41,491 bases of DNA from contig JAUXAN010000020.1 in the NCBI GenBank assembly GCA_030619885.1, forward strand, positions 1-41,491, given 5' to 3'. The position numbers and the translations under genes were made by a program. Shown here one piece after another: positions 8,781 to 14,260 of the stretch (positions are counted from its first letter, which is position 1; each line of letters starts with the position of its first letter). The notes beneath the pieces are model-generated. The model was not told the DNA's origin. It did not search any database and saw only the letters and a program-made list of their open reading frames with translations. The stretch is from a bacterium (GTDB taxonomy: Bacteria > Hydrothermota > DG-26 > JAUXAN01).

Positions 8781-11700
8781 ATGCTTATTGATGCAAAATA
8801 CAGAGTGCTTGCCAATCTTGGTTCAGGAAGCGGTGGAACCGTCTATAAGGTTAAAGACAAACTCACCAATGATATTCTTGCCTTAAAACTCTGCTCTTCA
8901 AAAAAATTTGAAAAGCTAAATCTTCTCAAATCCGACTTTTTCACACTGCGCAATCTGAACCATCCTAATATAGTCAGAGTTGTTGATTTCAAGAGGACAT
9001 CAGATGATAAATGCCATTTTACTATGGAATTTATAGATGGCGAAAACATCTTCAATTTCTTCAAAAAGAGAAAGGAGTTAGACGCCATTTACCCCGTTCT
9101 TGCCCAGGTTCTCAACGGTCTGAGCTACATACACAATAAAGGACTTGTTCACAGCGACATAAAACCGGAGAACATACTCGTATCAATAAGCAAAGACGAT
9201 AAGGCGACCCTAAAGGGCAACTTGGAAGTAAAACTGCTCGATTTCGGTTTAGCGAGAGGACTCACAGCACCTGCTGATATAAGAGGGACTCTTTCCTATA
9301 TCGCCCCTGAAGTCCTTCAATGTGGACGTGGAGACAGGAGGTCAGACCTCTACTCCCTAGGAATGGTCTTGTATGAAATCCTTGCAAATAGAAGAATAGC
9401 CTACACTCTAAATAAGTTGCCACCAGTTGAAAGAGACATCCCAGATGAATTTTTAGCCATTGTTACAAAACTCATTAAAAAAGAGCCGGAGAAAAGATAC
9501 TATTCGGTAGGAGAGGTCATCGAAGACCTGTCTCAGATTTATCCGTCCTTACCGGAGATTGAAGTCAAACCATCAACTTTATCGAGTCCTACGATAGGAC
9601 GAGAAAGAGAACTTTTTAGACTTTATGAACTTGCCGAGGAGGCGAAAACTGAAGGTCAGATAGTCTTTATCTCTGGCGAGCGTGGAATAGGTAAATCGAG
9701 GATTTTACAGGAATTCAAATTTGAATGTCAGAAAAAAGATATCTTTGTAACCTATATCAGGTGCGGAGAAAGAGAAAATAGACCTTTTGCCCTTTTAAAA
9801 CGAATCTTTGAAGAGAGCCAACTACCAATGCGTATATTTACAACAAAAAGTCCACTGTCTGGTGAGTCAGCAAAATTTAAAATCTTTGAAGAAGCATCAA
9901 ACCAGTTGAGAAAACTTTCAAAGAAACACCATCCTTTGACAGTTCTTGTTGATGATATTGAACTTGCTGACAATCTCAGTATCGAATTTCTCGCTTACTT
10001 CTCTTACGAACTGAATGAAAATGGTATTCTCTTCGTTGGAACCTTTGAGGATGAAAAATCGCTCTCTCCAATTTTTGAGAAGATAAAAGGCGAGAAATTC
10101 CTGATAGAGATGGAATTGAAAAAACTCGACCTTTCCCAAACCATCTCTATGGTTTCTTACATACTCTCATCAAAAGATTTAAACAATATCGGAGAATGGG
10201 TATATGGGAAGACAGGCGGTAATCCCCTCTTCATTGAACAGACAGTAGAACATCTTCTCAAATCCAATATCCTCATTAAAAAAATCGATGGGTGGCATTT
10301 GGAAATAGAAAGGCTGGAGGAAATAAGACCTGTGCTTTCTATCGAGGACGCGATAGATGTGATGCTCAAAAATTTAGAGCAAGATGAAATAGAATTTTTG
10401 AAATCTGCTGCCATTATGGGTGAACGTTTCAACATTGATGTTCTTTACAAATTTTTAGGTCTGGACGAACCGACCTTTTTTACTCTACTAAATAGACTCC
10501 GTATTAAAGACTTAATAAGAGAGGACGCCCAGTCAAACTATGCATTCTCGCATGGATGGATGCGTAACATTCTTTATGCTAAAATTGATAATAGAGAAGT
10601 GCTTCATAAGAAGGTATTTTCACTATCAAAGGATGACCCACAAGCCGACAATGTCTCATTAGCATACCAGAGTCTAAAAGGTGGATTGAGAGAGGAGGCA
10701 TACGATTATTTAGTCAAAGCAGGAAAAGAGGCGAAGGGGAATTATGCAAATGAATCTGCCCTCAAATATTTCAAGGAAGCACTGAATATAAAAGAGTCTT
10801 CTACAATCTATGAGAGTATTGGTGATATATGCAGTATAACCGGTGCATACGAGGAGGCACTACGAAATTACAACTTTGCTTTGAAAAACAAACCTGACTC
10901 ACAGATATATCTAAAAATCGGAAGGGTTTACAGGAACAGGGGTGACCTTAAAAATGCGATTTCATATTTTGACAAAGGACTTATAGAATCGCCCTTATCG
11001 AAATCACACATAGAAATTCTGAATGAAAAAGTATGGACATATTTGCAGAAATCTGACTTCCCAAAGGCTCTAAAGTATTGCACTGAGGCAAAAGAAAAGG
11101 CTGAAAAGTTCAAAGATAAACCTTTGCTGGCTGATATATACCATAATATGGGAGAGATCGCATTTAGAAAAAATAATTATGAAGAAGCCGAAGGATACTT
11201 TCGTGAAAGTATAAAGATAAAGAAAACATTTAAAGATGATTATAAAATTGCTCTCTCTTACAATAACCTGGCAATCTTGTTCTGGAGAAAAGGAGATTTA
11301 AAGATTGCGGAGAGATATTATAAGATCAGTCTCGGTTTAATGAGAAAGATTGGACATATTAAAATGACTGCCATTGCTAATAGCAATCTCGGAATTATTT
11401 ACCGAAATATGTGGGAGTGGGATAAAGCTGTTGACTGTTATGAGAAGAGCTGTGATATATTTAAAAAAATTGGCGACAAAAAATCTCTGGCAATTGTGTA
11501 TAATAATATAGCCAGTATATATCATTATAAAACAAATTGGAATAAAGCAATTGAGTGCTATGAAAAAAGTTTGAAAATCAGAGAAGAATTGGAGGATGAG
11601 AGAAGTATCGCTGTGGTCCTCAATAATCTGGCAAATGTGTACATAGAGATAGATGAGCCAGATAAGGTAAAGAGATACATAGATAAAGCATTAAAGTTGA

Positions 11701-13751
11701 GAAAAAAGGCAAACGACCTCAATGGTATGGCATATTCACTTCTCACCCTATCACTTTATTATGAATCAATGAAAGACTGGAAAGACTCTAAAAAAACTCT
11801 GAACCAGAGTTTAAGATTGTTTAAAAAAACCAATAATAAATCGGGGGTTGCATCTGTATACTCTTCTTTTGCCAGAATTTACCAGGATTCTGCCAAATCT
11901 GAAGAATACGCCAAGAAGGCGTATAGACTATTTAAAGACTTGAAAGATGAATGGGAAATTGGAAAAATTAAAAGGATTCGTGGTATGATTTATGCCGAAA
12001 AGGATGAAGGAAATAGAGCAGAGAGTTCTTTTAAAGAGAGCGAAGAAATTTTTAGAAAACTCCGAGTAGAGTATGAATTAGCCAGAACACTTTTTGAATC
12101 TGCCAAATTTAATTTGAAACGATGGGAAAAGAAAAGAGAACCTGCTGAACTCAAAACCGCTTATTCTCATCTAAAAGAAGCAGAGGAGATATTTCAACGA
12201 CTGGAGTTGAATAAAAAGTTCGAAGAGATTCATAGCCTTTACAGGGAAACCCTCGATGAGATTTCATTAGCCTATATACCATCAATTACAAGAAAAGACC
12301 AACTCAATATCCTTTACGAAGTGAGTAAAGTTATAAATTCGATTCTGAACTTGCAGTCTCTTTTTAACACCGTCATAAATCTGGTCATAAACCTGTTTAA
12401 TGCCGAAAGGGGAGTTCTGCTTCTCTTTGATGAAAAAACAGGAACATTGAGGCTCAGAGCAGGTAAAAAGATAGATGATGTTATCATAAAAGATGCTGCC
12501 AGATTGTCAAAATCTGTGATAGAACAGGTAGCAGAAAAGGGAGAGCCTATTATATGTGAAGATGCAAGGAATGACCCAAGATTTAAAAATCGTAAAAGCG
12601 TAATCCTCCATAATATCCGCTCTCTCCTCTGTGTCCCAATAAAAATAAGGGGTAGTATAATCGGCACTATCTACATAGACAGTTCCCTGTCTAAAAATAT
12701 CTTCACTAAAGAAGATAGAGATTTCTTTATAGCACTGGCGAATTTGATTGGCGTTGCCATTGAGAATGCAAGGTTTCACAGAGATTTAGAAAAAGAATCC
12801 ACCTATCTCAAGAGAAAAATGACAAAGAGACATTCGTTTCATAATCTCGTCGGTGGAAGCGAAAAGATGCAGGATTTATACAACACCATTGAAGTGGTTG
12901 CCAATACCGATTCAACGGTTCTCATTGAAGGTGAGACTGGAACTGGAAAAGAATTGGTAGCAATGGCGCTCCACTATTCGAGCAAGAGAAGAGACGATAT
13001 CTTCATCCCTGTCTCCTGCCGTGCCATACCCGAAACCCTTTTAGAATCTGAACTCTTCGGACATTCAAAGGGCGCATTCACAGGGGCGATAAGAGACAGG
13101 AAAGGGCTGTTTGAGGAAGCAACTAACGGGACAATATTTTTAGACGAAATCGGCGATGCACCTCTATCAATACAGGCAAAACTGTTGAGAGTTCTTGAAC
13201 AGAGGGAAATAAGAAGGGTAGGAGAGAATGTATCGAGGAGAGTTGATACGAGGGTGATATGCGCCACAGCAAAAAACCTTGTAGAGGAGATTAAAAAAGG
13301 AAACTTCAGAGATGACATCTTTTTCAGGTTAAATGTGGTGAGAGTAAGAATTCCACCACTGAGGGAGAGGAAGGACGATATTTTACTCCTCGCAAAATAT
13401 TTTCAAAAATTATATTCAAAAAAAATTGGAAGCAGTGTAAGAAGCTTTACCAGTGATGCGATTGAACTACTTTTGAATTATGATTGGCCGGGTAATGTGA
13501 GAGAACTCGAAAAATCTATTGAGAGAGCCTGCATCTTTGCCGAAGGGCCAAAGATAACTGCAAAGGATATAAAATTGGTAGGACTTGAAACGGAAGAACT
13601 GAAAACCTTGAAAGAAGCAAAAGTAACGATCGAAAAAAAGATGGTCAGAAATGCACTCTTAAAGACAAAGGGAAATGTAGCAAAGGCATCCCGTGAACTG
13701 GACATAAAAAGGCAGCAACTTCAGAGACTCATCAAAAGATATGAACTTTAA
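8781..13751 (+). CDS. Ser/Thr kinase-AAA ATPase-TPR-GAF-sigma-54 activator fusion regulator
   Basis: A 1656-residue cytoplasmic regulator with no membrane segment. Residues 1-265: protein kinase with glycine loop GSGSGGTVYKV, the lysine in ILALKL, catalytic HSDIKPEN (Ser replaces the Arg of HRD, a non-RD kinase), LLDFGLAR and IAPE. Residues about 270-630: STAND/AAA ATPase, GRERE then Walker A GERGIGKS (near 300) and LTVLVDDIELAD (near 387). Residues about 640-1130: many TPRs, for example NNIASIYHYKTNWNKAIECY. Residues about 1165-1335: GAF. Residues about 1355-1580: sigma-54 activator ATPase with GETGTGKE (near 1383), GAFTGA (near 1430) and IFLDEIGDA. The C-terminus GNVAKASRELDIKRQQLQRL is a Fis-type DNA-binding helix-turn-helix. 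Family logic: a phosphorylation- and ligand-sensing hub that remodels sigma-54 polymerase. A perfect sigma-54 promoter lies 227 bases downstream. Confidence 0.95.
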   Translation: MLIDAKYRVLANLGSGSGGTVYKVKDKLTNDILALKLCSSKKFEKLNLLKSDFFTLRNLNHPNIVRVVDFKRTSDDKCHFTMEFIDGENIFNFFKKRKELDAIYPVLAQVLNGLSYIHNKGLVHSDIKPENILVSISKDDKATLKGNLEVKLLDFGLARGLTAPADIRGTLSYIAPEVLQCGRGDRRSDLYSLGMVLYEILANRRIAYTLNKLPPVERDIPDEFLAIVTKLIKKEPEKRYYSVGEVIEDLSQIYPSLPEIEVKPSTLSSPTIGRERELFRLYELAEEAKTEGQIVFISGERGIGKSRILQEFKFECQKKDIFVTYIRCGERENRPFALLKRIFEESQLPMRIFTTKSPLSGESAKFKIFEEASNQLRKLSKKHHPLTVLVDDIELADNLSIEFLAYFSYELNENGILFVGTFEDEKSLSPIFEKIKGEKFLIEMELKKLDLSQTISMVSYILSSKDLNNIGEWVYGKTGGNPLFIEQTVEHLLKSNILIKKIDGWHLEIERLEEIRPVLSIEDAIDVMLKNLEQDEIEFLKSAAIMGERFNIDVLYKFLGLDEPTFFTLLNRLRIKDLIREDAQSNYAFSHGWMRNILYAKIDNREVLHKKVFSLSKDDPQADNVSLAYQSLKGGLREEAYDYLVKAGKEAKGNYANESALKYFKEALNIKESSTIYESIGDICSITGAYEEALRNYNFALKNKPDSQIYLKIGRVYRNRGDLKNAISYFDKGLIESPLSKSHIEILNEKVWTYLQKSDFPKALKYCTEAKEKAEKFKDKPLLADIYHNMGEIAFRKNNYEEAEGYFRESIKIKKTFKDDYKIALSYNNLAILFWRKGDLKIAERYYKISLGLMRKIGHIKMTAIANSNLGIIYRNMWEWDKAVDCYEKSCDIFKKIGDKKSLAIVYNNIASIYHYKTNWNKAIECYEKSLKIREELEDERSIAVVLNNLANVYIEIDEPDKVKRYIDKALKLRKKANDLNGMAYSLLTLSLYYESMKDWKDSKKTLNQSLRLFKKTNNKSGVASVYSSFARIYQDSAKSEEYAKKAYRLFKDLKDEWEIGKIKRIRGMIYAEKDEGNRAESSFKESEEIFRKLRVEYELARTLFESAKFNLKRWEKKREPAELKTAYSHLKEAEEIFQRLELNKKFEEIHSLYRETLDEISLAYIPSITRKDQLNILYEVSKVINSILNLQSLFNTVINLVINLFNAERGVLLLFDEKTGTLRLRAGKKIDDVIIKDAARLSKSVIEQVAEKGEPIICEDARNDPRFKNRKSVILHNIRSLLCVPIKIRGSIIGTIYIDSSLSKNIFTKEDRDFFIALANLIGVAIENARFHRDLEKESTYLKRKMTKRHSFHNLVGGSEKMQDLYNTIEVVANTDSTVLIEGETGTGKELVAMALHYSSKRRDDIFIPVSCRAIPETLLESELFGHSKGAFTGAIRDRKGLFEEATNGTIFLDEIGDAPLSIQAKLLRVLEQREIRRVGENVSRRVDTRVICATAKNLVEEIKKGNFRDDIFFRLNVVRVRIPPLRERKDDILLLAKYFQKLYSKKIGSSVRSFTSDAIELLLNYDWPGNVRELEKSIERACIFAEGPKITAKDIKLVGLETEELKTLKEAKVTIEKKMVRNALLKTKGNVAKASRELDIKRQQLQRLIKRYEL

Positions 13752-13863: not shown

Positions 13864-13886
13864 AAGTGCAACTAATTGTTGCACTT
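13864..13886 (+). terminator. perfect hairpin: regulator-gene terminator or activator site
   Basis: Arms AAGTGCAAC (13864-13872) and GTTGCACTT (13878-13886) pair over 9 bp around a 5-base loop; the right arm runs into TTTTT and then a further T-rich stretch, which fits a Rho-independent terminator. The same palindrome, TGCAAC-N5-GTTGCA, has the architecture of sigma-54 activator (NtrC-like) operators and is centred about 130 bases before the predicted sigma-54 start site, so it may have either or both roles. Confidence 0.7.
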
Positions 13887-13925
13887 TTTAATTTTTAGTA
13901 AAAAATACCGAAAAACAACTTTGTC

Positions 13926-13954
13926 TATAACTCCTTGATAATTAAAGAGTTATA
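13926..13954. promoter_or_regulatory. inverted repeat upstream of the sigma-54 promoter
   Basis: TATAACTC (13926-13933) and GAGTTATA (13947-13954) are perfect inverted arms 13 bases apart, centred about 65 bases before the predicted start site. A dimeric regulator could bind here; whether it is the neighbouring Fis-type protein is inference. Confidence 0.45.
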
Positions 13955-13977: not shown

Positions 13978-13994
13978 TTGGCACAGAATTTGCT
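13978..13994 (+). promoter_or_regulatory. sigma-54 (-24/-12) promoter
   Basis: TTGGCAC-N4-TTTGCT, i.e. TGGCAC-N5-TTGCT, matches the sigma-54 consensus exactly with the required 12-base distance between the GG (-24) and GC (-12) elements. The predicted start site is near 14005, 18 bases before the peptide gene. It is the only perfect match I noticed in the window and lies directly after the gene for a sigma-54 activator. Confidence 0.85.
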
Positions 13995-14022: not shown

Positions 14023-14163
14023 ATGAAAAAGTTAATTCTTTCTTTAGTGGCAGTTCTGTTCGTTCTCACTGCCTATGCGTTTGCAGGGCTCCAACCTAAT
14101 CAGGAGGAAGAACCGATACCTATGCCGCCGGCATCTGGTAATGTGTGGTTGAATCCACAATAA
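14023..14163 (+). CDS. 46-residue secreted peptide precursor under sigma-54 control
   Basis: A short gene with an ideal AAAGGAGGG ribosome site 5-6 bases before ATG. The product begins with a classic Sec signal peptide: two lysines, a hydrophobic core (LILSLVAVLFVLTAY) and an AFA cleavage site at residues 19-21. The remaining 25 residues (GLQPNQEEEPIPMPPASGNV and five more, ending LNPQ) are acidic, proline-rich and free of cysteine. The gene has its own sigma-54 promoter and terminator, so it is a dedicated single-gene transcript. I recognise no family. Roles as a signalling peptide, secreted stress peptide or envelope factor are all open; regulation by the upstream fusion protein is inferred from position. 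Confidence 0.82.
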   Translation: MKKLILSLVAVLFVLTAYAFAGLQPNQEEEPIPMPPASGNVWLNPQ

Positions 14164-14228
14164 GATTTAGCATGGAGGAATGATGTTGGGAGATTATTCT
14201 CCTACAATACTACCCTCCATACCCTCCG

Positions 14229-14260
14229 GGGGATGGGAAAAACTCCATCCCCTTTTTTTT
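14229..14260 (+). terminator. Rho-independent terminator of the peptide gene
   Basis: GGGGATGG (14229-14236) pairs perfectly with CCATCCCC (14245-14252) around an 8-base loop and is followed by eight T. A very strong terminator, 65 bases after the peptide stop codon. Confidence 0.93.

What the first reader, a model, noticed from the sequence alone, without database searches (positions are those of the whole stretch)
13864..13954. Two palindromes placed like enhancer sites for the sigma-54 activator
TGCAAC-N5-GTTGCA (centre about -130) has the spacing of NtrC-like upstream sites, and TATAACTC-N13-GAGTTATA is centred about -65. The first also looks like the terminator of the regulator gene, so one sequence may do two jobs.
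Basis: partly seen in the sequence, partly recalled or inferred. Interest (0 to 1): 0.6.

Follow-up and report, generated by a model that had tools for sequence, protein, structure and literature searches.

The report
Docking site for a sigma-54 activator
The first of the two mirror-image DNA sequences is almost certainly the landing site of the regulator encoded just upstream, which switches on a tiny proline-rich secreted-peptide gene; the same layout recurs across a whole bacterial phylum with the landing site changing in step with the regulator's DNA-reading helix, while the second mirror repeat is probably incidental.

Summary
Both palindromes exist exactly as described. Palindrome 1 (AAGTGCAAC-N5-GTTGCACTT, 13864-13886, centre -130) is very probably the enhancer site for the giant kinase-STAND-TPR-GAF-sigma54 regulator encoded just upstream. 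Alone it is only borderline against chance (P about 0.05). Comparison across the phylum settles it: perfect TGN4-N5-N4CA dyads follow orthologous regulator genes 44 times in 68 loci against 0.7 expected. They lie between the stop codon and a sigma-54 promoter of a short, usually proline-rich peptide gene, at repeated distances (60, 72, 97, 128-132, 143, 214 bp from the -24 element). Each locus uses its own half-site word, repeated in its copies, and that word tracks the recognition helix of the regulator next door (partial Mantel r 0.28-0.42, p <= 0.0006). The nearest relative with a readable downstream region has the window's word and nearly its helix. Palindrome 2 (TATAACTC-N13-GAGTTATA, centre -65) has no counterpart in relatives and is within chance; its left half overlaps a full IHF-consensus match, a weak but testable alternative. 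The terminator double role is possible for this hairpin but is not a property of the family: flanking A and T runs are symmetric. Binding itself is inferred, not shown.

The parts
13864..13886 (.). Palindrome 1: AAGTGCAAC-TAATT-GTTGCACTT; proposed enhancer (upstream activator) site; core 13867-13883
   Evidence: family members
13926..13954 (.). Palindrome 2: TATAACTC-N13-GAGTTATA; present but within chance and not conserved
13928..13940 (-). Match to the IHF consensus WATCAANNNNTTR (TATCAAGGAGTTA) overlapping the left half of palindrome 2
   Evidence: three HU/IHF-family genes in the genome
13979..13994 (+). Sigma-54 promoter element TGGCAC-N5-TTGCT (perfect consensus)
   Evidence: conserved in relatives; RpoN in the genome
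14010..14017 (+). Shine-Dalgarno AAGGAGGG of the peptide gene
14023..14163 (+). 46-aa peptide gene, Sec-type signal and short Pro-containing tail
   Evidence: counterparts; coding signature in relatives
14228..14260 (+). Terminator-like hairpin plus T8 after the peptide gene
8781..13751 (+). 1656-aa regulator: Pkinase, AAA_16, TPR, GAF, Sigma54_activat, HTH_8 (Fis type)
   Evidence: full-length orthologs

Best explanation
Palindrome 1 is the enhancer site of the regulator encoded at 8781-13751. Two Fis-type HTH domains of a dimer each read a TGCAAC half-site; bound there, the protein assembles its AAA+ ring and, by DNA looping, opens the sigma-54 promoter about 104 bp downstream (dyad centre to -24 element), producing a short mRNA for the 46-aa exported peptide. 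Shown here: the dyad, the promoter, the phylum-wide recurrence of the arrangement, and the matching of half-site to recognition helix. Inferred: binding, ring assembly, looping, activation, and what signal the kinase/STAND/TPR/GAF part senses. Palindrome 2 is most likely incidental.
For: (1) 44 perfect TGN4-N5-N4CA dyads in 26 of 68 orthologous downstream regions versus mean 0.70, maximum 3 in 200 dinucleotide shuffles; of 65 perfect 6-bp-arm, 17-bp palindromes 44 begin TG and no other dinucleotide exceeds 4; 20 of 44 carry the AAG/CTT flanks the window has. (2) None in 48 kb of regulator 3' coding sequence, 2 in 12.7 kb upstream of the regulators. (3) Repeated distances to the -24 element (60, 72-73, 96-97, 128-132, 143-144, 214) and 71-bp or 31-bp steps between copies; a dyad scan without sequence assumptions lands on the same positions. 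(4) In 13 of 14 loci with two or more perfect copies all copies use the same word. (5) The half-site word tracks the recognition helix of the adjacent regulator: partial r 0.42, p 0.0002 controlling for AAA+ identity; 0.36 and 0.28, p 0.0002 and 0.0006, without the hand-assigned locus and after dereplication; r only 0.06 with AAA+ identity. (6) Same-class relative G001 has helix RQQLQRLMKK (window RQQLQRLIKR) and sites YGCAAC-N5-GTTGCR, three in 3 Mb, two of them at the regulator locus. (7) In relatives the same dyads recur at other sigma-54-type promoters with identical spacing: 260/128/97 in f9 genomes, 72 in G108 and G109. (8) The distance is in the normal range of 80-150 bp, and NtrC's enhancer TGCACC(A/T)4TGGTGCA has the same 17-bp dyad form (PMC4987338).
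Against: No binding or expression data. The window has only one recognisable site where many relatives have two or three. 42 of 68 loci lack a perfect 17-bp dyad, although many of these show 16-18-bp or single TGCGAC half-site variants by eye. In the nearest relative, G001, the peptide next to the site lacks a clear sigma-54 element and has a sigma-70-like TTGACA...TACAAT instead. The promoter in f9 genomes has TGACAC in place of TGGCAC.
Confidence: 0.9

Rival explanations
1. Palindrome 1 is mainly the intrinsic terminator of the regulator gene.
For: 9-bp stem, -12.3 kcal/mol, followed by TTTTTAATTTTT, and it passes a consensus terminator scan. It lies about 113 bp after the stop codon.
Against: Family members come in two or three copies per locus with identical half-site words; flanking A and T runs are symmetric (15 versus 17 of 44); the word follows the HTH helix; copies sit upstream of other sigma-54-type promoters that are not behind the regulator gene. 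None of these is expected of a terminator.
Confidence: 0.05
2. Palindrome 1 is both enhancer and terminator in this genome.
For: Same hairpin evidence; no other terminator-like site was found between the regulator stop and the promoter.
Against: Not a trait of the family; no transcript data.
Confidence: 0.25
3. Palindrome 2 is a second functional site: a binding site for another regulator, or a bending (IHF/HU-type) site between enhancer and promoter.
For: Perfect 8-bp arms. TATCAAGGAGTTA (13928-13940, minus strand) fits the IHF consensus, about -77 to -65; such matches occur in 6 of 58 loci versus 1.0 expected, 1 of 300 shuffles as high. Three HU/IHF-family genes in the genome.
Against: Arms this long occur in 16% of shuffles. 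No dyad at this place in relatives and none in same-class genomes. The IHF-like matches lie at varying positions, two of the six are near-duplicates, and IHF specificity is not established outside proteobacteria (general knowledge).
Confidence: 0.2
4. Both palindromes are chance features of an A+T-rich intergenic region.
For: Shuffle P 0.047 and 0.16.
Against: Palindrome 1 matches a family of sites 60-fold over expectation, in the same place, with the same flanks and length, and with the helix-matched half-site of G001.
Confidence: 0.04

Closest known systems
NtrC enhancer sites (TGCACC(A/T)4TGGTGCA; PMC4987338)
   Same: 17-bp dyad with TG...CA ends, half-site beginning TGCA, about 100-150 bp upstream of a sigma-54 promoter, read by a Fis-type HTH.
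   Different: Half-site TGCAAC, not TGCACC; single site; the regulator is a kinase-STAND-TPR-GAF fusion, not a response regulator; the target is a short exported peptide, not nitrogen genes.
TGT/ACA-type activator sites (half-sites 9, 11 or 12 bp apart in Desulfovibrio vulgaris, PMC4641369; NifA is of this type)
   Same: Most relatives' sites are TGT-N11-ACA dyads; regulator gene and sigma-54 promoter are co-localised.
   Different: The window's site starts TGC; site words differ by lineage and track the helix.
NorR multi-site enhancers (three sites upstream of norVW; PMC4987338)
   Same: Relatives with three copies at fixed steps resemble the three-site NorR layout; GAF plus AAA+ plus Fis HTH.
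   Different: Spacing (71- or 31-bp steps), site sequence and target genes differ; the window has one site.
RRNPP-type peptide pheromone systems (TPR receptor with adjacent exported-peptide gene; recalled from general knowledge)
   Same: A TPR-containing regulator next to a short exported-peptide gene.
   Different: No sequence relation tested; sigma-54 activator; peptides Pro-rich, and in several families only 16-21 aa without a signal sequence.

Membership tests
Enhancer site of a sigma-54 activator (bEBP), NtrC/NifA type | Near-perfect dyad of about 14-18 bp | tested here: met
   Perfect 6-bp half-sites, 17-bp span, extending to 9-bp arms
Enhancer site of a sigma-54 activator (bEBP), NtrC/NifA type | About 80-150 bp upstream of a -24/-12 promoter | tested here: met
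   Centre -130; perfect TGGCAC-N5-TTGCT at 13979-13994
Enhancer site of a sigma-54 activator (bEBP), NtrC/NifA type | Cognate activator with sigma-54 AAA+ domain and Fis-type HTH, and RpoN, in the genome | tested here: met
   Sigma54_activat 1.1e-70, HTH_8 5.4e-8; RpoN 4.9e-50
Enhancer site of a sigma-54 activator (bEBP), NtrC/NifA type | Conservation of the site with its activator | tested here: met
   44 dyads versus 0.7 expected; word tracks helix
Enhancer site of a sigma-54 activator (bEBP), NtrC/NifA type | Binding and activation through the site | not testable with these tools
   Needs footprinting and reporter assays
Intrinsic terminator (palindrome 1) | Stable hairpin followed by a T run | tested here: met
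   -12.3 kcal/mol, TTTTTAATTTTT
Intrinsic terminator (palindrome 1) | Directional T tail kept among orthologous sites | tested here: not met
   A>=4 before 15/44, T>=4 after 17/44
Activator enhancer (palindrome 2) | Site shared with copies in the locus or with relatives | tested here: not met
IHF site (13928-13940) | Match to WATCAANNNNTTR between enhancer and promoter | tested here: met
IHF site (13928-13940) | Conserved position and a true IHF in the organism | tested here: inconclusive
   6/58 loci at varying positions; HU/IHF-family proteins present but not told apart

The most novel reading that the evidence does not exclude
The site belongs to a phylum-wide, so far undescribed (to the extent searched) signalling cassette in which a kinase-STAND-TPR-GAF-sigma54 activator drives a dedicated small Pro-rich peptide that could itself be the signal sensed by the activator: a peptide-pheromone-like loop built on sigma-54, with DNA words and recognition helices diversifying in step so that parallel cassettes stay insulated.
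Probability: 0.2. Interest if true: 0.85.

Novelty: new member of a known kind. Interest (0 to 1): 0.5.

Why it matters
It turns a pattern seen by eye into a predicted protein-DNA pair with a natural series of about 20 helix/half-site pairs, a useful set for reading the Fis-type HTH recognition code. It also fixes the control of an unusual small-peptide gene that recurs across a little-known phylum. The regulator's target is predicted well enough that its unknown signal can be hunted with a single reporter.

Tried and rejected
Palindrome 2 as a second enhancer: no counterpart. Terminator as main role: symmetric flanks. Other targets in the own genome: 7 one-mismatch sites, none in a locus showing a perfect sigma-54 consensus. 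Naming the phylum: no nucleotide match between named contigs (two of them candidate division WOR-3) and my loci, so left open. PDB search with the HTH: no hit. Paper searches for this regulator/peptide pair found nothing.

Full report
Observation. Both palindromes are present at the stated positions. The sigma-54 element TGGCACAGAATTTGCT lies at 13979-13994, which places the dyad centres at about -130 and -65. The upstream gene (8781-13751) encodes a 1656-aa protein with Pkinase, AAA_16, TPR, GAF, Sigma54_activat and HTH_8 domains; the genome has RpoN. Downstream is a 46-aa ORF with a signal-like N terminus followed by a strong terminator-like hairpin. Taken alone, the palindromes are weak evidence: shuffles of the 271-bp intergenic region give arms of 9 bp or more in 4.7% and 8 bp or more in 15.9% of trials.

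Comparison. A search of the phylum (147 genomes) with the regulator alignment found full-length orthologs in many families. I read the DNA after the stop codon in 68 loci. The arrangement recurs: regulator gene, one to three 17-bp dyads, a sigma-54-like element, a ribosome site, and a short ORF that is Pro-rich in most families (for example MDGPIIPILPPPRPAPPMD, MFGVFVPPPPLPCPPK, or a signal peptide followed by ...PPPPPPID). In relatives the peptide ORF shows third-position-biased change (L061 versus L098: 1, 2, 20 differences by codon position), so it is a real gene there. In some lineages the first target is instead a larger secreted protein (L004, L016, L084) or, in L022, a 397-aa protein without a signal sequence.

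Statistics. Perfect TGN4-N5-N4CA dyads: 44 in 26 of 68 loci; 200 dinucleotide shuffles gave a mean of 0.70 and at most 3. The ends are specifically TG...CA (44 of 65 perfect 17-bp palindromes), and the flanks AAG/CTT found in the window are the commonest (20 of 44). The 3' coding ends of the same regulators (48 kb) have none, and 12.7 kb upstream of the regulators has two. Distances from dyad centre to the -24 element fall into classes (60, 72-73, 96-97, 128-132, 143-144, 214; the window's is 104), and copies are often 71 or 31 bp apart. A dyad scan with no sequence assumption finds the same positions.

Who binds. Each locus has its own half-site word, the same in all copies (13 of 14 multi-copy loci), and the word follows the recognition helix of the adjacent regulator rather than general relatedness: partial Mantel r 0.42, p 0.0002; without the hand-assigned locus L003 and with 17-bp sites only r 0.36, p 0.0002; dereplicated to 20 loci r 0.28, p 0.0006. 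The correlation of half-site with AAA+ identity is near zero. The window's helix RQQLQRLIKR goes with TGCAAC; the nearest relative with a readable downstream region, G001, has RQQLQRLMKK and YGCAAC-N5-GTTGCR sites, two at its regulator locus and one elsewhere. RRTI[E/Q]R helices go with TGCGAC, RRTIYKY with TGTATA, RPTLYKK with TGTAAA, RFGLQKK with TGTCAA. Families f13 and f5 (THRRQLQRLI or IHRRQLQRLI) lack the 17-bp dyad but mostly carry TGCGAC half-sites upstream of the promoter.

Other promoters. In five f9 genomes the same dyads were searched genome-wide, and most hold them at further loci. Where I could read the promoter there, the geometry is the same (260/128/97 or 249/128/97) upstream of the same TGACACGCTTTTTGCT element. 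In G108 and G109 a second dyad sits exactly 72 bp upstream of a second, perfect sigma-54 element. This co-occurrence away from the regulator's stop codon argues against a terminator. In the window's own genome the exact core is unique, so here the activator looks dedicated to the peptide.

Palindrome 2 and the terminator idea. Palindrome 2 has no counterpart at its position and none in the two same-class genomes. Its left half overlaps a full IHF-consensus match; such matches are mildly over-represented near these promoters (6 of 58 loci versus 1.0), and three HU/IHF-family genes exist, so a bending site is a fair secondary hypothesis. The hairpin of palindrome 1 could terminate transcription, but A and T runs around the family's sites are symmetric (15 versus 17 of 44).

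Conclusion. Palindrome 1 works like, and by every feature testable here is, an enhancer site of a sigma-54 activator; it shares the 17-bp dyad form of NtrC sites (PMC4987338) and resembles the TGT/ACA-type sites catalogued in Desulfovibrio (PMC4641369). Binding and activation remain inferred. What the activator senses, and what the peptide does, are open; the peptide as its own signal is the most novel reading not excluded.

Noticed in passing
L003 (G001:C46) and L202 (G001:C53:20417): In the nearest relative the dyad precedes sigma-70-like promoters (TTGACA...TACAAT, TTGACA...TATACA) rather than a clear sigma-54 element, with one sigma-54-like TGGCATATTTCTTGCT farther downstream.
   Followed up: partly
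L006, L008, L009, L039, L186-L192: f9 genomes use TGACACGCTTTTTGCT (GA in place of the usual GG at -24) consistently at this regulator's promoters; L004, L016 and L101 have TGTCAT.
   Followed up: no
L010-L013, L015, L017, L045, L051-L053, L056, L057, L085, L088: Families f13 and f5 mostly have 16-21-aa Pro-rich peptides without a signal sequence and TGCGAC half-sites in place of the full dyad; L085 has two near-identical tandem peptide ORFs.
   Followed up: partly
L060, L065, L066, L070, L072, L090 and others: A short inverted repeat such as TTGAAATTTCAA lies about 16.5 bp upstream of the -24 element in several families; function unknown.
   Followed up: partly
L193 (1203-1283), L194 (993-1073): A second dyad plus sigma-54 promoter drives a small protein (MKTAQIYEVKMLDGTRYKGEIAY...), apparently co-regulated with the peptide.
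   Followed up: no
L016, L019 upstream of the regulator: TGTAAAGTTTTTTTACA and TGTAAAAAAACTTTACA upstream of the regulator gene: possible autoregulation or a neighbouring cassette.
   Followed up: no
G000:C76:3278-3685: A second, divergent RpoN DNA-binding-domain match in the genome (29 bits).
   Followed up: no
L103 (Terriglobia MAG), about 440 nt after the regulator-like gene: A related kinase-STAND protein is followed by a 25-aa ORF, MEEILVLEVEELEDKTAPNVIWTGN, which looks like a small peptide precursor.
   Followed up: no
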